A DNA stretch of 64,000 nucleotides from Glaciozyma antarctica PI12. Taxonomy: Eukaryota; Basidiomycota; Microbotryomycetes; Kriegeriales; Camptobasidiaceae. Under the pieces are notes generated by a model, which was not told where the DNA came from, did no database searches, and saw only the letters and a list, made by a program, of their open reading frames with translations. The position numbers and the translations under genes were made by a program. Positions 2,374 through 59,200 of this stretch are shown in pieces; within the stretch, counting starts at the first letter, position 1, and every line of letters begins with the position of its first letter. The DNA is taken from the NCBI GenBank assembly GCA_002917775.1, contig KZ627156.1:852838-916837 (forward strand). Reading direction: 5' to 3'.

Positions 2374-2549
2374 TGGTGAGGAGGTGAGGGGAGGAGGGAG
2401 AGAGGTGGACACGCGCGTCGTCACCACTTTAACGCTTGGGAGCTGGCGACTTGGCAGTTTCGAACGAGGAAAGCTGTTCGTGATAGACAACTGTACGACT
2501 TAATCTCTCGCCGAGGAACAACAATGAGCGAGTGGCGTGAACGGGGGAT

Positions 2550-3774
2550 TTACCCCTGGAAGCGATTCTTTGCTCTCCCCTTGATCCCGTACTCCTTCAA
2601 CTCCACCGCAAACACAGCTCCCGAAAGCGGGTACTGTGATTCATGAGAGCCAGTATCAGTTCCGCTCGAGAGCACACCGCCACATCCAAGCTCACCTTGT
2701 CCAAAAGCTCCTGCTTCGCACCCTGCCCACTCTCGGCCAGCGACGCCGTCGTCACAAACAACGTCGTCAAGTCCTTTCCCCCAAACTCGATGCAGGTGAT
2801 ATTCTGCGACTTGTCAAAGAGGATCTCGAGGTCGATGGACCCGTCGGGGCTATAGCGAGTGATTCTTGATCCGCGGAATTTGGCGGACCAGATGTAGTCG
2901 GCGGAGTCGACGGCTAGGCCGTCGGGGAGTCCACCGTTTGGTTCGTTCTTGGTGTTGACGAATACTTTGCGGGAGGAGAGGTTGAGAGTGCCGGTGGAGA
3001 GGTTGTAGGAGAAGGAGAAGATGGTCGAGAGGAGTGTGTCCGTCACGTAGCTGCGTTCCCATCAGCTGAGATTGCGCGAGAGGGAATGCAATCAAGCTCA
3101 CATCGTCTTGCTGTCCTTTGTGAATCCAATCCCGTTCGGCAACGCCAGCCCCTCCAGCACAGTCTGCACCTTCCCGCTTTTCTCCACGCTAAACATCGTC
3201 GACTCCTTGAGCATCTTGACGGGCAGTCCTCGCAGAATCTTCGTCGCAGCCATAAAGCGACCCGCGGTATCAACTTCGCCGTCGTTGAACATCTGAGGAG
3301 TCGTAGCGGAGGAGCTGGAGGCGAGAGCGACGTAGGAGATGGGTGCGGGGTTGAGGGAGGTGGAGGGAGGGAGGATAGCGAAGCCTTTGAGGCAAGCGGC
3401 AATAAACTGCATCGTGATTTAGTCCTAGGCAGGGCACTGGAATCGAAAGAGCGCACGCCGGGTCCATCGGTTCGCAAGCGAATGCAGGAAACTGGGTGTT
3501 CGTACATGTCGAACGTGTGAGCGTTGCTGTCGAGCTGCAAGTGGTGTACCTCGCTCCTCCCGATGTCCACCCAGTGTAACGTGTTTGTCTCCTGCTCGTA
3601 CACGGGACTGGCGCTCCTTGATCAGCGCGGGAAGGGCGGAGGAGACGAAAGGACGTACGACTCGCCCAGTTCGCAGCGCAGGTCCAGGAGCGGTTCAGCG
3701 GGTGCTTGAATCACTCGGTGAGCAGGAGAAGATAGCTGAGCAGCTACAGCAGCTAGGCGAGCAGCGGAAGACAT
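2550..3774 (-). CDS. SMP-30/gluconolactonase-like (regucalcin family) protein
   Basis: A six-bladed beta-propeller of the SMP-30/gluconolaconase/LRE family. The first exon (ATG at 3774-3772) ends CELGES and joins across the intron 3608-3658 to PVYEQETNTLHWVD, the typical first-blade signature with the metal-binding Glu in GES. Further blocks are FIAACLKGFAIL, FNDGEVDTAGRF (FNDGK-like metal-site loop), ALPNGIGFTKDSKTMYVTDT (Asn and Asp ligands) and GLPDGLAVDSADYIW. The C-terminus reads GAVFAVELKEYG and stops at TAA 2552-2550. Family members hydrolyse sugar lactones or related esters with a divalent metal. The metal ligands look present, so the enzyme is probably active; the natural substrate is unknown. 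Predicted cytosolic: no signal peptide is seen. Confidence 0.85.
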
Positions 3775-23188: not shown

Positions 23189-26100
23189 TTAGAGCTTGTC
23201 GTTGAACTGGTCGAGCGTAGGGATGTCGGGCTTGAGTCCCTTCCTCTTGCGGATCTCGAGCACGAGCGCCTCGACCTTTCCTCCAGCCTCGGTAATCTTT
23301 CCGGGCTGCGATTCGAGTACCTCGTTAGCCACTATGCGAGAGAGGGAGCAAGGGAGGGACGTACCATCGTCTGCCAGTGATCGAAGACCATCTGGGGGAA
23401 GGCCTGTCCAGCGGTGGCCTGGCGGAGCTCTGGAGCGAGGGTAACGTCGTCAGCGCGCGGTCAGGGAGACGAGAAGAGAAGCGACGCACCTCCGGTGAAA
23501 CCGAAGGACTCGTTGACGGGAAGGTAAGCCTTGACGGTGTACCTGGAAGCGAGACGTCAGGATCGAAGCGCGAGACGACGACGAGACTCGACGTACATGG
23601 GGGTTCCGGGGCGCTGCTCCTCGGAGAAGACGTGTCCACGCTTCTTGTTGAGGGTGGAGTAGATACCTCCGAGAGCGGTCTCGGGGCACTGCACCTCGAT
23701 CTGGTGGAGGGAGGCGTCAGCGACGAAGCGAAGGAGAGAAGACGACGTCGACGCACCATGTAGACGGGCTCCTGGAGTCCGGGGTCGGCGAGGAGGGCCG
23801 AGGCGTAAATGACACGTCGGCAAGTGGGGATGAGCTGTGCGAGAGGAACGAGGCGAGGTCAGCTCGTGCTCGGACGACGACGAGAGCGAGAGAACGCACC
23901 TGTCCTCCACCACGGTGAATGGCATCAGTGTGGAGGGTAACATCCATGATGTTGTAGCGGGTTCCACGCATGATCTCCTCAGCGCAAGGTCCCTCTGCGA
24001 GTGCGAGAGAAAGTCAGGGACCAACGACGACGACGCGTGAAAGCTCGAGAACGCACCCTTGGAAGCCCACTGGAAAGCGGCGACGCCTGTCGAGGAACGA
24101 GTCAGCGAGAGCTCGTGGCGAAGGAGGAAAGGGAGAACGCACAAGAATCCTTGATCTCGGAAAGGAACTGAACTCCCTTGGTGGTGTCGACGAGGAAGTT
24201 GGGTCCTCCTCCGTCGGGTCCGAAGCACCAAATCTTGCGAGCGTCGGTGACGTCCCATCCGTACTCGTCGGCGAGCATGCGAGCGCGAATCTTGAAGTCG
24301 TCGCGGGGGCCGATCTTGCCGTCCTCGACAGCCTTCGAGACCTCCTCGTCGATGGGGCCAGCCTTCATGTAGAGACGGTTGTGCTTGTTCTGCGACTTGG
24401 AGAGGGCGATCATGGAGGACTCGGCCTGAACGGTCTCGCGGTATCCGACGACGGGGTCGGAGATCTTGAGGGGGACTCCGGCGTGGTCCTCGACGAGATC
24501 CTTAAGGCAAATCTCGAGGTGGAGCTCTCCGGCTCCGGCGACGATGTGCTCTCCGGTCTCGGAGATCCAGGTCTGAACGCAAGGATCGGACTTGGAGAGA
24601 CGCTTGAGTCCCTCGACGAGCTTGGGGAGATCGTTGGCGTTCTTGACCTCGACGGCAACCTGCACGACGGGGGAGACGCTGGAGAGGGAGCGACGTCAGC
24701 TCCTGCGACGGAAAGCCGACGAGAGGAACGAAGACGCACGAGAACTTCATGACCTTGAGGTTGTGGGCGGTCTCAGACGACGTGAGGGTTCCTGACTTGA
24801 GGAGGAACTGGTCGACTCCGACGAGTCCGACGATGTTTCCGGCGGGGCAATCCTCGAGAGGGTCGACCGAACGCCCCATCATGAGGACGGTACGCTGGAT
24901 GGACTTGATGAAGAGGTCGTCCTTCTTTCCGGGGACGTAGTTGGGTCCCTGAATGCGAATCTTGGGTCCAGCCTTGACGGTTCCGGAGAAGACACGTCCG
25001 AAGGCGTAGAAGCGACCCTTGTCGGAGGTGGGAACCATCTTGGAGACGTAGAGCATGAGGGGGCCCTTGGCGTCGCAGTCGCGGATGGCGATGGCGTTCT
25101 CGTCGTCCATAGGTCCCTCGTAGAGGTTCTCGACGCGGTAGCGCTGAGCGGTGACGGGGGAGGGGAGGTTGATAACGATCATCTCAGAGTAGTCGGTCGC
25201 CGGCGGGGAGGAACTTGCGCATGATGACCTTGAGGAGCGCCTTGCCCTCGAGATCCTTCTCGTCCGAGGTGAGGACGACCTCGAGCTTCTCGAGAATGGT
25301 GGGGATCTGGTCCTTCTTGAAGTTCATGACCGCGTCGAAAATCTTGAAGATGGGCTCGAGAACGAACTGTGCGACGCCAGACGGTTAGCGCGCGAACGGG
25401 AAAAAAAAGAAGGCGCGACGCGAACGCACCATGTTGAATCCACGCTCGAGGGGCTTGCCGTCGGCGTCAACTCCCTTGGTCGACCACTTCTTTGTCTTGG
25501 GGTTGAAGTAGTTGTCGCCCCAAAGCTTGGGCATGAGCTTGTCCTTGCCGACACCGAACTTCTTGGCGTAGCGAGTGGCGAACTGACGGAGGGTGAAGGC
25601 CCATCCGTGGAGTCCGGATCCGAACGCGACGGTTCCCTGGTCGGGGTAGACCTGGACGTCGCCGAGGACGGGGTCGTTGTAGGTCGCGATGATAACGTTG
25701 ACCGACTCGATCGTGCGGGAGAACGACTGGTAGAGATCCTCCTTGGAGACCTGGAGCTCGAGGAGAGCGCGGTCGACCTTGTTAACGATGATGACGGGCT
25801 TGATGCGCTCGCCGAGGGCCTGGCGAAGGACGGTCTCGGTCTGAACGCAAACTCCCTCGACGCAGTCGACGACGACGAGAGCTCCATCGGTGACACGGAG
25901 GGCGGCGGTGACCTCCGAAGAGAAGTCGACGTGACCGGGGGAGTCGATCAGGTTGATAAGGAACTCTCCGCCTGGGGAGCCTAGAGAGGTCAGCCCCGTA
26001 CGCTGAACTGGCTCGAGCGAGACAAGGACGAACAGGGGTCGGTCTTCTGCTTGATGTCGCTAACGTCCTCCTTGGGGAGCTCGAAGAACATGGTGATGGC

Positions 26101-26654
26101 GGTCGACTTGATCGTGATTCCGCGGTCCTGCTCGTCCTGACGGGTGTCGGTGGCGCGAGCATCTCCGGCGCGAGAGCCAGCGATGATACCGGCCTTGGCG
26201 AGGAGGGAGTCGGTGAGGGTCGACTTTCCGTGATCGACTAGAGCAGGGCAGCAAGGCGCGAGTCAGCTCCATCCCTCCAACCCGCACAGTCTCCCTTCCT
26301 CCCCCCACTCCCCTCCCACTCGCGACCAAATCGAAACCAGGCTTACCGTGGGCGATGACGGACACTGAGGACAGAAGAACAGTCAGCTAGTGTACGGGCG
26401 TGGTGACAAGGCTAGGAGCAGGGACGCACTGTTACGAATGCTGAGCGAGCGGAAGAAGAGGAGATCGGCCAGTCAGAACGGGATCACGAGCGGCAGGAGA
26501 GCTCCACCGAGAGGGCAGCAAGAGTAAACGAAACGCACTTCGTAGGCTTGTCCATCAGTTGCCTGATCTCATCGATAGTCTACCGAGAAAGCAGCGTTAG
26601 CCTGGCTGGTTCCTGAGGTCCTTTTAGTGGGATTCAACTTGCGAAATTGACCAT
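23189..26654 (-). CDS. EFT1: Translation elongation factor 2 (EF2), with an apparent +1 frame break
   Basis: EF2 is the GTPase that moves tRNA and mRNA through the ribosome. The start MVNFA (ATG 26654-26652), the P-loop AHVDHGKST (split by the intron 26238-26346), the switch region [34 protein letters not shown], and the diphthamide loop DAIHRGGGQ (near 23900) are all present. The C-terminus ends [10 protein letters not shown], stop TAA 23191-23189. There are more than ten introns, mostly 50-60 nt. One oddity: within the conserved block [18 protein letters not shown] the frame changes by +1. The codon after CTC is an in-frame TGA (25186-25184), and the conserved frame resumes at GAG ATG (from 25185). 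No gt...ag intron fits there. Elsewhere the gene is perfect. This could be a sequence error or a frameshift site; see findings. Confidence 0.95.
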
Positions 26655-42850: not shown

Positions 42851-43918
<1,068 letters not shown>

Positions 43919-44392
43919 CTCAGAGTGTTCTGCAGGCGTAGGACGTGGTGGTCAGAAGCTGGAACGGGGAGCTCAAGAACCGGAGGCTCGAGCGGATCCC
44001 TCACGTTTGGAGGAAGAGCTGGGAAAGATCTGGGCGCAAGAGGAGGTTAGCTGAACCGTTTCTTGACCTTGGTGGCCAGCTGGTTCACCTCGTTGTCGCG
44101 TCTGAAGAGCGTTGGCGGTTGAGAGAAGGAGGGGTGGGAAGGGCTGGGAGAGGGTCGAGAGTCTGCTGTTGGAGCGGGAGTGTCAGCCACCGTACACGCC
44201 TGATGAGCCTGTACACACTGGCGGTTAGGTGTCGAGATTGAGTAGGAGAGGAGCCTTGGTCGGAGAGGAGCCCAGCGTGGCCTTAGGCGACTTCCGCAAG
44301 TTGTTTGATTTCCCTCTTTCTCAACTTCTCTCTGCGATCTCTCAGCAGAAGCGACGCCGTCTTAATCACAAGGGGTTTCGACTCTCATTCAT
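43919..44392. other. Intergenic, RAC1 upstream region and LYS1 3' region
   Basis: 474 bp. RAC1's 5' UTR and promoter are on the 43919 side; LYS1 ends at 44393. No gene seen. Confidence 0.35.
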
Positions 44393-53298: not shown

Positions 53299-56200
53299 AT
53301 GGAGCCGGTCAAGGAATCGGTGTTCGAATCGTTCCCTCCTCTGGCAGGCGTTGAGGAGGAGGAGGAAGGAGCACTCGCCAAGCTCAAGCGTCTGTTCACC
53401 TCCACACCAGCAGCAACAGCCACCGCCTCGTCCATCTGCTCAGCCGCCTCAGTCGCAGCAAGTGCAGCCTCCTCAGAACCACGCAGTACCTCCCCAGTCC
53501 CGTCCTCCTTCGACTCGGCCCCGCCTACGCGCCAGGACACCGCGCGACATGCCTCCATCTCCACCAGCTCCAAGCCTCAAGCCGCACCTCGACCAGGACC
53601 TCTCCCCATCTCGTCCGCCCACGCCAGCGCCTTACTATCCTATCCTCCCCAACGGCCGCCGCATGGTTCGCCCAATTCGCCTCTCGGGAGTCACGCCCTC
53701 GGTTCGACTCACAGTCGCGCACTCGGAGAAGGGAGACCTCGTCCAGTCGGGGAGCTCGAGGTCTATCGCCGGCGATGCAGGACTCGGAGGAGACAGGTTC
53801 AATATGGGAGGGATCCACGGCTCACCGACTGCCAGCGATTCGTTCGCGCTCAGCCGGGGGAACCTCTCCTCCATTCCAGGGTTCCCTCTAGGGCGAGAGG
53901 GCGGCGACGATGCCAAGTCGGTTAGGTCGGTCAGCTCGATCGCAAGGCCGTCAGCTTCGGTGGCGCACATCTTTCGGAGGTTGAGGGGAGAGGTGAGTCC
54001 GCGTCCTGGAATGTTTGGATGAATTGGGCTACGAAGCTGACTGCGCGTGCGTTCGCAGGGCCTTTCGAAGGACTACTGGATTCGAGACGAGTCGTCGAAG
54101 GAGTGCTTTGACTGCCAGACGGTTTTTACGGCCTTTCGGAGGAAGCATCACTGTGAGTTTGCGTCGCCGCGCCCTCGCAAGGTGCACTGAACTGACGCTC
54201 CTCTGCCGCCTAGGTCGTATCTGCGGTCAGATCTTTTGTTCTCGATGGTTTGCACCCTGTCGCCAGCGATCAACGATCAATTCAGCTAACGCGGCTTTTT
54301 CGCAGCGCATCCAATATCATCTCGAGCGCTCGATTCGGCAACCAAGGCGTCGTGCGCGTCTGCAACTTCTGCATGTCTGTCCTGGAGAATGGCGACGCGA
54401 CTCCCGACGACACAGGACCACGCTTCCGCTCCAGCTTCCGCGAATCCTCTCCCCTCGTCATCTCCGCCCCTCTCGAAGCGTCCGCCCGACCTCTCCAATC
54501 TCAATACGCCGCCTCGCACCTCTTCCCCCGCACCGAAACGCCCTACAACTACCTCGCGGACGACAACTTCGGGCGCATCTCTGAGACGTCGTCGAGGCCG
54601 GGAACGCCGGTCGATTACTTCGAGGACGACGCGGATAGGCAAGATCGCTCGACGATGAGCTCTCCCCTCGTTATGCAGAAGACGCCTCCTCTCGCTCCAG
54701 CCACGGCGGCAGCACCGTTCCGTCGAGAATTGGCGGAGGACGACAAGGAGCCGAGGAGGGAGATTGATGGAGAAACGTTGAGTGGGCTGGGGATTATGGA
54801 GGAAGGGGAGGAGCTGGAGCTGAAGCTCGAGTCCGACGCACCACATCTCGAACCCCATCCGACCCTCGCACCTCCCCCGCCTTCGCTCGCGGGAGGGAGC
54901 GACACCCTCGGCCCCGCCCTCGTCGCCATCGTCGAGCCTTCCCTCTCCTCCGCCCTCCCGCCCGCCACGAACGTCGAAAGCAGGCTATCCACCGACACCT
55001 CGCCCAACTTCCCTTTCAACCTCCAACTCTCACCCTCGAAGCTCTCTGACCAGAATTCTCCCTCCGGCCGAGCTCGCTCAAAGTCCCAACTCTCCCTCCA
55101 CCCCATCAGCTCGAGCTCAGGCTTCGTCTTTCCCCACCTCCCGTACGAAGGCCCCGGTCCCGATCCCACCGACATCCACCGCATCCTTGCCGAGTCAGGA
55201 CCGTATCGCAACAACGTCAGCGAGACGGGCCACGGCGTCCCTACCGTGCCGACGGGGCCTATCGAACTCTCGCCGGCGAGGATGGAGCACATTCGAAGGA
55301 TGCTTAGGCAGAGTCTCGAGCGAGAAGGGATTCCCGATCCCGCCGCGTGGGAGAAGGTCCTCGTCAAGCTCCTCGTCAAGGCTGCGACGTCCCTCGCGCC
55401 CAACGTTTACGGTGCGGACGATCTCGACGTGCGCAAGTACGTGTGCGTCAAGCGGATCGCGGGAGGCCTTCCTCGCCATTCGGAGTACGTCGCAGGCGTC
55501 GTCTTCACCAAGAACGTCGTCACCAAGCAGATGGCCCGCGAAGTAACTCATCCTCGGATCATGCTCATCACCTTCCCTCTCGAGTACCGGCATCAGCGAA
55601 GCGAGGGGGAGATCATCTCGCTCGACGGAGTCCTCGGTGGAGAGCGGGAAACTCTTCAAGGCGACGTCGACGCCATCACCACCCACCTCCCGCATATTGT
55701 CATCTCCCAGTTCGACATCTCGCGTATCGCCATCGAGCTACTCGCGAAGAGCAACTTCGTCGTGGCGAAGAACGTCAAGCCGCGGGTCATCGAAGCCCTC
55801 GCAAGAGCGACACAAGCAGTGCCCGCGTCGAGCGTCCTTCAACTCCGAGGAGGATCTCAGGAGGACGCAAACAAGGTGCGGCTCGGACGCTGCGACTCGT
55901 TCAAGGTCCAGACGTTCGTCCATTCGATGATTCCCGGAAGGAGGAAGACGTTCCTCCGTTTCGAGGGCTGCGACGGCGAGCTCGGCTGCACGCTCATCCT
56001 TCGCGGAGGAACGATGGAGGTCCTCACCAAGGTCAAGCGGATCGTCAGGACTATGGTCAGCGTCGTCTACAACGCCAAGCTCGAAAGCTACTTCGTCCGC
56101 GACGAGTTCGTCGACCTCGTCCCCATCCAGCCTTCCCCTTCCCCTCATTCCCCTCCCATCGACGAACCTCACGACTTCTCGCTCAACACCCTCGCCTCGC

Positions 56201-59200
56201 AAGAGCGCGAGCGCACCTCGAAGGAAATCGCCGAATCCCTTCGACCGTACCAGGAGACCGCCCTCTCTGGCTCGCCGTTCGTCGAGATCCCCCCGCCGTA
56301 CCCTCTCGTCCGCATGGCCGATCTCCGCATTTCCGCATTTCGGCGTTGCGGCGGATTCGCGAGCGCGAGGAGACGGAGCAGATCATCCACGAGGAGGCGG
56401 CGTCGAGGGAGGCGTCCGAGCTTTCACTCTCGCTCTCGCAGAGCCCGTCGTCAACGTCGCTCGGCGACCTCATCCCGTCGGATCGCAGTCGCGCAGTATC
56501 CTTTTCGGAGAAGCACGTCCCAAGGACGGCCGACGCACTCAAGATTCTCCAGACGCCCGAAGACCTCGCTCGCATTAGCGAATTCACCGACGCGGAGGAC
56601 CAACACGCCCAGCAACTCGTCCTTTGGAAAGCCTACGTCGAGCAAAACCGCGACAGCTTCAACCCCGCCGACCACCAGCAGCTCCACGTCCTCGAGTCGT
56701 CGGCGTGCACGCAAACGGAGCGGCTCTGCGCCCCGCCCGTCGTCCGAACGATCACCTTCTACGGCGAGCACGACGTCGCGCTCGGCAAGTTCGTCGAGGA
56801 CCTCTGTCGCGCAGGGAACTGCCCGCTTCCGGGCTGCGGGAGGGCGATGCTGGTGCATTCGCTCTCTTGGGTCCACGGGCGGTACCGCGTCTCGCTCAGC
56901 CTGCAGAACTACGCGCCGAGCTTCGCACGACCGGAAGAGATCGTCATGTACGGCGCGTGCAAGATCTGCGGAGTCAAGACGCCTCAAGCCGCCATGTCGG
57001 ACGAGACGTACAAGCTCAGTTTCGGCAAGTTCCTCGAACTCTACTTCTACCCCCAAAACCTCCGCCTTACCGACCATTCCTGCGACCACAATCCCCATAC
57101 CGACTTCTCGCGCTTCTTCACCTTCCACAACATCACCCTCGGCATCAACGTCGACCCGATCGACCTTCGCAACGTCGTCGCCTCCTCCTCTAGATCATCA
57201 AGATCATCCCCGAAAAGCAGCTCCAGCTTCGGAACGAGGAGTACGTGACGATCCTCAAGAGGAGCACGGCGTTCTGGGACTCGATCGACCATCGAGTTAC
57301 CTCGTTCAAGTACGACCTCGTCGCGGCGGACATGCGCGAGGAGGCGCGGGCGGCGCTGCAGGAGATCTCGCTCAAGTCTGCGGCGGGACGGCTTGCGATT
57401 CTCAAGATGCTGGAGACGACGTACGAGGAGGCGCAGATGACAGGAGGGATGCAGATGACGACGGTGCGGAGCCTCCTGCAGGACAAGATGTGCGAATGGG
57501 ACGCCGAATGGATGGCGCTCGAGCTTAGGCTCATTCCGTACGAGAAGGAGTCGCGGCGCATCACGGCGGGTCAGATCAAGCGCCTCTTTTCCGACGGCAC
57601 CACTCCCTCCGAGCGACGCATGAGCACGACGTCCTCGACCCTCGCGCCGGCGAACGAGCTGGACGAGAAGCAGGAGGACGAGATGGAGGCGCCGAGCGGA
57701 GGGACACCGCTCACGAAGGCGGAGCTCGATCGGTTCAACGGCGACGTCGACCCGCATTCTCTCTCCTCAGCTCCCAGCACCAGCGGCGACACTACGATCT
57801 CCGCTGCATCCTCCCTCCTCTCGAGCCCTCCTCCCTTCCGTACCCACTCCGCCAAAGCCGCCACCTCCGACGAAGACAGCGATTCGACGGTCTGCGCCGA
57901 TCCTACCTTGACGACGGCGCCTCTAGTCGCTTCGCCCTTCATAGCTGATCGCCAGCTGGTAGACCTGCCAGAGGATACGAGCGAAGCGGAGAGCGAGGTC
58001 GAACGGACTCCCAACCGGCGGACCAAGACCGGCGTCGCCGACCTCGTCAGCTTTTTTTCGGACGACGGAGGGAAGGCGGTGGTGGAGAAGGCGGCGAGTA
58101 CTCTCTCGAACGCCAGAAGTCCGCCGCTCGCTCGGCCTCTCCTTCGTCGCGGAGTCAGCGACAAGTCTCGCAGCATCAAGCCTCGCACGAGCGACGTCTT
58201 CTCCGACGGAGATGGGAGTGGGAGCTACGCTCGCAACGTCGGCGTGTTGCATCTTTCTCAGCGCGCCTACGCAGCCGAAACGCCGACCGCGTACGCTTTC
58301 CGATCTCCTTTACTCGAACGAATGCTGACGATGTTCGTTGGTCCTGCAGAATCCCGCCCTACAAGGACTTCAAGCAGACGACCAGCCTCGCAGACGTCTA
58401 CGAGCCCGGAGATCCCATCATTCCTCGTCGCCCTCGCCAGCTAAGCTCGAAGACCAGCCGCGACACGTCGCCCTCCACCTCCCGCTCAGCTTCGCGGTCG
58501 GCCTCGCGATCGGGCAGGAGCACGCCGGCCGTCTCCTCTCATCGAGCAGCTGCCGACGGTTCTACGATTACTCTCAAGGGACGCCCCGCCGCCGTCTCGA
58601 CCGTTTCGTCGAGGACTACCGTCAAGGGCAAGGGGAAGGAGTCCTCGACGCGAGATCTGGAGGCCTCCGAATCCACCGCCAAACTCGGCAAGACCAAGAG
58701 CGCCAGCTCCGCACGTCCAACGGCCAGCTCGATTAACAAGGCATCAAGCAGTCGTCGACCGGTCTCAGTCCTCAGCAGCTCCGGTCACCGAGTCTCGACC
58801 ATCGCGAACCACTTCAACAAGATTACGAGGGACGCAGATCGAGAGCGCCAGCGACGTATGGCTCTTTTCGGAGCGAGGAAGCGGCCTCGCCCAGTCGCCA
58901 CTGCGGAGCCTACCGTCGTTCGGGTCTTCGACAACGTCAAGGACGCCGTCAAGGACAATTCGGACGACGAGACCGACGGAGCGTCTTCAGGAGCCGACGA
59001 CGAGTACGACGATGAGTTCGATGTCGACGGGCGCGACGAGCAGAAGGTCGGTCGCGAGGTGAATGGCCACCGCGCCGAAGCTCGTGAGCCGTCGGCGGCT
59101 TCCTCGAAAGAGAGCTACATCTACGGCACTGGCGAACCGGCGACCTCGATCGTCGATACTCTTCTCCACCTACCTGCCGCGCTGCCTGTCGAAGCACCTC

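What the first reader, a model, noticed from the sequence alone, without database searches (positions are those of the whole stretch)
25180..25190. EF2 carries an in-frame TGA exactly at a +1 frame change
The conserved EF2 segment reads ...LPAGDRLL in one frame, then CTC TGA; the next conserved residues, [14 protein letters not shown], begin one base later (CTC T GAG ATG). No gt-ag intron can remove the extra base. The local context, a slow stop codon after a CTC, resembles known +1 programmed frameshift sites (bacterial RF2 CUU UGA C, antizyme UCC UGA U). A frameshift inside a translocation factor would allow self-regulation of translocation, which would be new. The plain alternative is a one-base insertion error in the assembly, and other frame breaks in this window make that the more likely reading.
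Basis: partly seen in the sequence, partly recalled or inferred. Interest (0 to 1): 0.7.

Follow-up and report, generated by a model that had tools for sequence, protein, structure and literature searches.

The report
EF2 frame break, probably sequence error
The gene for a core protein-making factor in this fungal genome is interrupted by a one-base frame break, and the evidence points to a small error in the assembled sequence rather than a new way of controlling translation.

Summary
On the minus strand, the single-copy eEF2 gene of a 20 Mb fungal genome reads conserved eEF2 into TGA (25186-25184) and continues in the next frame at 25185. The two sides align to eEF2 with no residue missing or extra, and no intron fits. 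The exact point of the frame change is not fixed. Codon usage puts it a few codons upstream of the TGA (of the codons just before it, CTA occurs nowhere else and CGA once elsewhere in 824 eEF2 codons), while conservation of Leu-Leu favours the TGA. An exact 4-base tandem repeat (CGACCGAC) also lies there. So the 'CTC TGA' slip-site reading is not secured. No downstream RNA structure stands out. The same assembly carries a one-base break in a second conserved gene (Hsp110/SSE1-like), in a run of six C, supported by protein matches on both sides, and a probable one in an HSP70 gene. Best explanation: a local consensus or assembly error (about 0.85). Rivals: a real mutant or minor allele (about 0.08) and programmed +1 frameshifting (about 0.03). 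No relative and no reads were available, so frameshifting is not excluded, but nothing specific supports it.

The parts
23189..26654 (-). eEF2 coding region. Start codon ATG at 26654-26652 (manual reading), stop 23191-23189. Interrupted by short introns, GT-AG in the gene model; the first appears to have a GC donor by manual reading.
   Evidence: PDB matches
25187..25366 (-). last block of the upstream frame: 60 residues, gap-free match to yeast eEF2 276-335
25184..25186 (-). TGA that ends the upstream frame
24742..25185 (-). downstream frame, from [10 protein letters not shown] to the next intron; conserved eEF2
25187..25204 (-). interval in which the frame change can lie. It holds CGA (1 of 40 Arg codons elsewhere in the eEF2 exons) and CTA (0 of 69 Leu codons elsewhere), and the exact 4-base tandem repeat CGACCGAC (25199-25192).

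Best explanation
The frame break is a local error in the assembled consensus: one base too many, possibly with neighbouring wrong bases or a slip across the CGAC repeat. The organism's real eEF2 gene is most likely one open frame once its ordinary introns are removed. Shown: the break exists in the assembly, only one eEF2 copy was found there, the rest of the gene is intact and conserved, and a second conserved gene carries the same kind of break. Inferred: that reads would not support the extra base.
For: eEF2 has one copy by the search made (with a 142-residue piece: one match at 100%, the only other match 38% identical on another contig), so a true break in a haploid genome should be lethal (general knowledge). 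The rest of the gene parses cleanly and is conserved. In an Hsp110/SSE1-like gene of the same assembly (L039), one frame matches SSE1 up to residue 195 (2qxl) and the next frame from residue 195 on, with the change inside a run of six C and no intron. An HSP70 gene (L040) has a probable one-base break. Together that is 1 supported and 1 probable in 14 conserved-gene loci with 30,639 predicted coding bases, flanking genes included. CTA occurs nowhere else and CGA once elsewhere in 824 eEF2 codons, which suggests that the codons before the TGA are not truly read in that frame or are miscalled. Two abstract starts in a search listing bear on this: PMC12007338 says errors of long-read assemblies introduce frameshifts and premature stops, and PMC8812927 says long-read-only bacterial assemblies keep mostly homopolymer-length errors.
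Against: The assembly looks mostly clean. With the corrected gene model, 13 interior frame changes were proposed in 160 kb of predicted coding DNA, some of them probably false, and spiked single-base insertions were found in 46 of 92 cases, so errors look uncommon. Of the 14 control loci, 12 showed no break that I accept. The eEF2 site is not a homopolymer, unlike the L039 site. The sequencing technology is unknown to me and no reads were seen. Rare codons before a stop are also what a programmed site might show.
Confidence: 0.85

Rival explanations
1. Programmed +1 ribosomal frameshifting at or just before CTC TGA makes full-length eEF2 and lets the cell tune it.
For: In-frame TGA with the conserved frame one base later. 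Two codons rare in this gene precede it: CTA 0 of 69 and CGA 1 of 40 elsewhere. [quoted passage not shown]
Against: CTC slipping +1 to TCT gives poor re-pairing (reasoned from the letters). No downstream structure (z -0.43, 59 of 200 shuffles fold as well). The break point may lie upstream. Another gene in the assembly has a break with no such features. No eEF2 frameshifting is seen in the titles and abstract starts listed (8 of 8 papers listed; 10 of 14 listed).
Confidence: 0.03
2. A real DNA change, such as a 4-base tandem duplication (CGAC), present in a minor or heterozygous allele and captured in a collapsed consensus.
For: An exact CGAC repeat lies in the interval (25199-25192); exact 4-base tandem repeats occur at 4 of 2320 positions scanned in eEF2 exon blocks. 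The downstream-frame codons there are favourable. Mosaic consensus causing apparent frameshifts is reported for Trypanosoma brucei (PMC8445201, title and abstract start in the listing).
Against: Read as a duplication, the original would be one residue shorter than eEF2 and would lack the Leu-Leu seen in yeast and 7old eEF2. A 20 Mb assembly with one eEF2 copy looks haploid (inference).
Confidence: 0.08
3. Split gene: translation stops at TGA and restarts at the ATG just downstream (TGAGATG), giving two eEF2 pieces.
For: Stop and ATG lie within 7 bases; the gene model itself prefers a stop plus restart here.
Against: The ATG is the conserved Met of EMIV, so it is expected anyway. Split eEF2 is unknown to me (recall).
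Confidence: 0.01
4. A non-canonical or unrecognised intron removes the extra sequence.
For: A 46-base GT..AG stretch that ends just before the ATG would restore frame.
Against: It would delete [13 protein letters not shown], residues that match eEF2 one to one.
Confidence: 0.01

Closest known systems
Residual indel in a draft (for example long-read) genome assembly
   Same: single-base frame break in an otherwise intact, conserved, single-copy gene; a similar break in another conserved gene of the same assembly
   Different: the site is not a homopolymer, and two codons rare in this gene sit beside it
Antizyme (OAZ) +1 frameshifting, UCC UGA (motif from the finding and recall)
   Same: UGA at the apparent frame change, +1 direction
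   Different: no conservation shown, no stimulatory structure found, P-site codon CUC, regulatory logic only imagined
Bacterial RF2 +1 frameshifting, CUU UGA C (motif from the finding and recall)
   Same: Leu codon then UGA
   Different: CUC re-pairs poorly after a +1 slip; a eukaryotic gene without a Shine-Dalgarno stimulator

Membership tests
Programmed +1 frameshift site (OAZ / RF2 / Ty1 type) | frame break present in the true genome and mRNA | not testable with these tools
   no reads or RNA data
Programmed +1 frameshift site (OAZ / RF2 / Ty1 type) | site conserved among relatives | not testable with these tools
   no relative found in viral contigs or genome contigs; no relatives held for G000
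Programmed +1 frameshift site (OAZ / RF2 / Ty1 type) | frame change located at a slippery codon plus a slow stop | tested here: inconclusive
   codon likelihood prefers a point 3 codons upstream by 5.1 log units; the conserved Leu-Leu prefers the TGA
Programmed +1 frameshift site (OAZ / RF2 / Ty1 type) | stimulatory RNA structure downstream (common, not universal) | tested here: not met
   87 nt folded alone, z -0.43, 59 of 200 shuffles fold at least as well; pseudoknots not modelled, other lengths not tried
Assembly indel | other genes of the same assembly show one-base breaks unrelated to any recoding signal | tested here: met
   L039: two adjoining PDB matches in different frames; L040 probable
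Assembly indel | reads do not support the base | not testable with these tools
   no reads available

The most novel reading that the evidence does not exclude
eEF2, the translocation factor, is made only by a +1 frameshift at a CUC UGA stop preceded by rare CGA and CUA codons. Translation speed or translocation efficiency would then set eEF2 synthesis in a feedback loop, like RF2 or antizyme but in the core elongation machinery.
Probability: 0.03. Interest if true: 0.8.

Novelty: not a real feature. Interest (0 to 1): 0.1.

Why it matters
If the extra base were real, eEF2 would be the first translocation factor I know of (recall) that is controlled by frameshifting. As it stands the finding mainly warns that this assembly holds one-base breaks in core genes, so single frame breaks in it should not be read as biology without reads.

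Tried and rejected
Intron explanations at the site: rejected, since both sides align to eEF2 with no missing or extra residue. A second eEF2 copy that could rescue the cell: none found. Relatives: viral contigs and genome-contig scans found none, so the true residues at the site could not be settled. My first gene models had a bug that could not close phase-0 introns and over-called frame changes (63); only and later are used for counts. Aldehyde dehydrogenase and sugar-transporter family tables were too fragmentary to judge breaks. Breaks that the faulty model had put near 43233 (Ras-like) and 48589 (kinase) are introns in the corrected model. Pfam on pieces beside some of the 13 remaining proposals gave no pair with a match on both sides. 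A PDB search of 56331-57191 gave nothing useful. A first PDB query of the upstream block was out of frame and found nothing; it was repeated in frame. A first codon count (788 codons from 11 blocks) left out some exons, held a few codons now placed in an intron, and showed CGA as unused; the fuller count found CGA once elsewhere (23819), and the codon preference fell from 6.3 to 5.1 log units. A search for repeats around the site showed nothing I could use.

Literature: four searches gave listings. One search (532 papers held the terms, 12 listed) gave nothing I used. Passages were read only in PMC6301793 (12 of 21 places shown).

Full report
What is there. The window lies on contig C11 of a 19.98 Mb genome in 18 contigs. 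The many short introns and the fungal-type eEF2 point to a fungus; a red basidiomycete yeast such as Rhodotorula is my recalled guess, not tested. The minus strand from 26654 to 23189 encodes eEF2. With a gene model trained on this window and the 200 kb beside it, the gene parses into exons and short introns with one exception: a stop (TGA 25186-25184) next to a restart at the conserved Met (25182-25180). The model did not find the first short exon, which I read by eye.

The break. The upstream frame gives FVLEPIFK...[19 protein letters not shown], which matches yeast eEF2 residues 276-335 with no gap (22 distinct PDB sequences matched, named EF2, eEF2 or Eft2p and the like). The downstream frame gives [25 protein letters not shown]... 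and matches eEF2 over the following residues (39 distinct PDB sequences matched, including Snu114-type and archaeal EF2 proteins). In 5it7 the upstream block ends at residue 331 and the downstream Glu aligns to 332. There is one base too many and no room for an intron.

Where the frame changes. In 824 eEF2 codons counted outside the doubtful interval, CGA is used 1 of 40 times for Arg (at 23819) and CTA 0 of 69 times for Leu, yet both stand just before the TGA in the upstream frame. A codon likelihood scan puts the change after GAC 25198 (-73.59), with neighbouring points at -73.78 and -74.53, against -78.67 for a change after CTC 25189. An earlier scan on fewer exons gave a difference of 6.3 instead of 5.1. 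Against this, Leu-Leu at this point is present in 4 of the 5 alignments printed (these 4 are near-identical yeast-type sequences; the fifth alignment stops one residue earlier) and in 7old, and the codon-preferred reading would lose it. An exact 4-base tandem repeat, CGACCGAC, lies at 25199-25192; such repeats occur at 4 of 2320 positions scanned. These clues conflict, which suggests that more than one base may be wrong locally. The TGA need not be part of any slip site.

Is the assembly prone to this? The first gene models over-called frame changes through a bug; the corrected model is used here. In 27 pieces (20 loci of 10 kb and 7 window pieces that overlap by 1 kb; 160,266 predicted coding bases) it proposed 13 frame changes more than 300 bases from a piece end, and 3 close stop-restarts, one of which is the eEF2 site. 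Spiked single-base insertions were recovered in 46 of 92 cases. None of the 13 was confirmed by protein matches on both sides; pieces beside some of them were tried, and some (for example window 51118) look by eye like missed short introns. A better test is conserved genes. In 14 loci holding chaperonin (7), HSP70-family (6) and one other EF2-like gene (30,639 predicted coding bases, flanking genes included), the model proposed 3 frame changes, two of them within 100 bases of a locus end and not counted, and 2 close stop-restarts that I did not examine. The third frame change is in an Hsp110/SSE1-like gene (L039). There, one frame matches SSE1 112-195 and the next frame SSE1 195-280 (2qxl), with the change inside a run of six C. 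A further one, in an HSP70 gene (L040), was seen by eye: conserved WLD... in one frame...YDYEELQKELEAVANPI in the next, with no intron signal that I could see between. The model explained L040 by a different intron, so I call it probable only. One to two breaks in about 30 kb would give eEF2 (about 2.5 kb) roughly a one in ten chance of a break, and the window (41,340 predicted coding bases) one to three. The numbers are small and rough.

Mechanism. I commit to a consensus error at about 0.85. Programmed frameshifting would need the base to be real. The fold of the 87 nt from the TGA on is no better than shuffles (z -0.43). CUC re-pairs poorly after a +1 slip. The frameshift-prone CGA pairs named in the passages I read of PMC6301793 do not include CGA-CTA. 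Two literature searches show no eEF2 frameshifting in what they listed; of those papers I saw titles and abstract starts, and passages of PMC6301793 only. The decamer CTCTGAGATG occurs once more in the window, at 43916-43925; I did not study it.

Limits. No reads, no RNA data and no relatives were available. Family searches meant to widen the error-rate estimate did not complete.

Noticed in passing
L039 (G000 C9 177437-181405), locus about 2467-2473, minus strand: Hsp110/SSE1-like gene with a one-base frame break in a run of six C; the two frames match adjoining residues of SSE1.
   Followed up: yes
L040 (G000 C1 294665-298294), locus about 2880-2910, plus strand: HSP70 gene with a probable one-base frame break near its C-terminal end: WLDASAE in one frame, YDYEELQKELEAVANPI in the next.
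   Followed up: partly
window 54214-57528 (+): Long ORF with a Cpn60_TCP1 domain match (Fab1/PIKfyve-like by recall). The gene model proposes frame changes at 56329, beside an exact 8-base tandem repeat (CCGCATTT twice), and at 57192, yet the original frame also stays open to 57528 and a second long ORF (55308-57248) overlaps it.
   Followed up: partly
window 26642-26580 (-): The first eEF2 intron appears to have a GC donor (GC-AG) by manual reading.
   Followed up: no
window 43916-43925 (-): Second copy of CTCTGAGATG; 2 found against 0.19 expected, and 3 of 100 shuffles reach 2.
   Followed up: no
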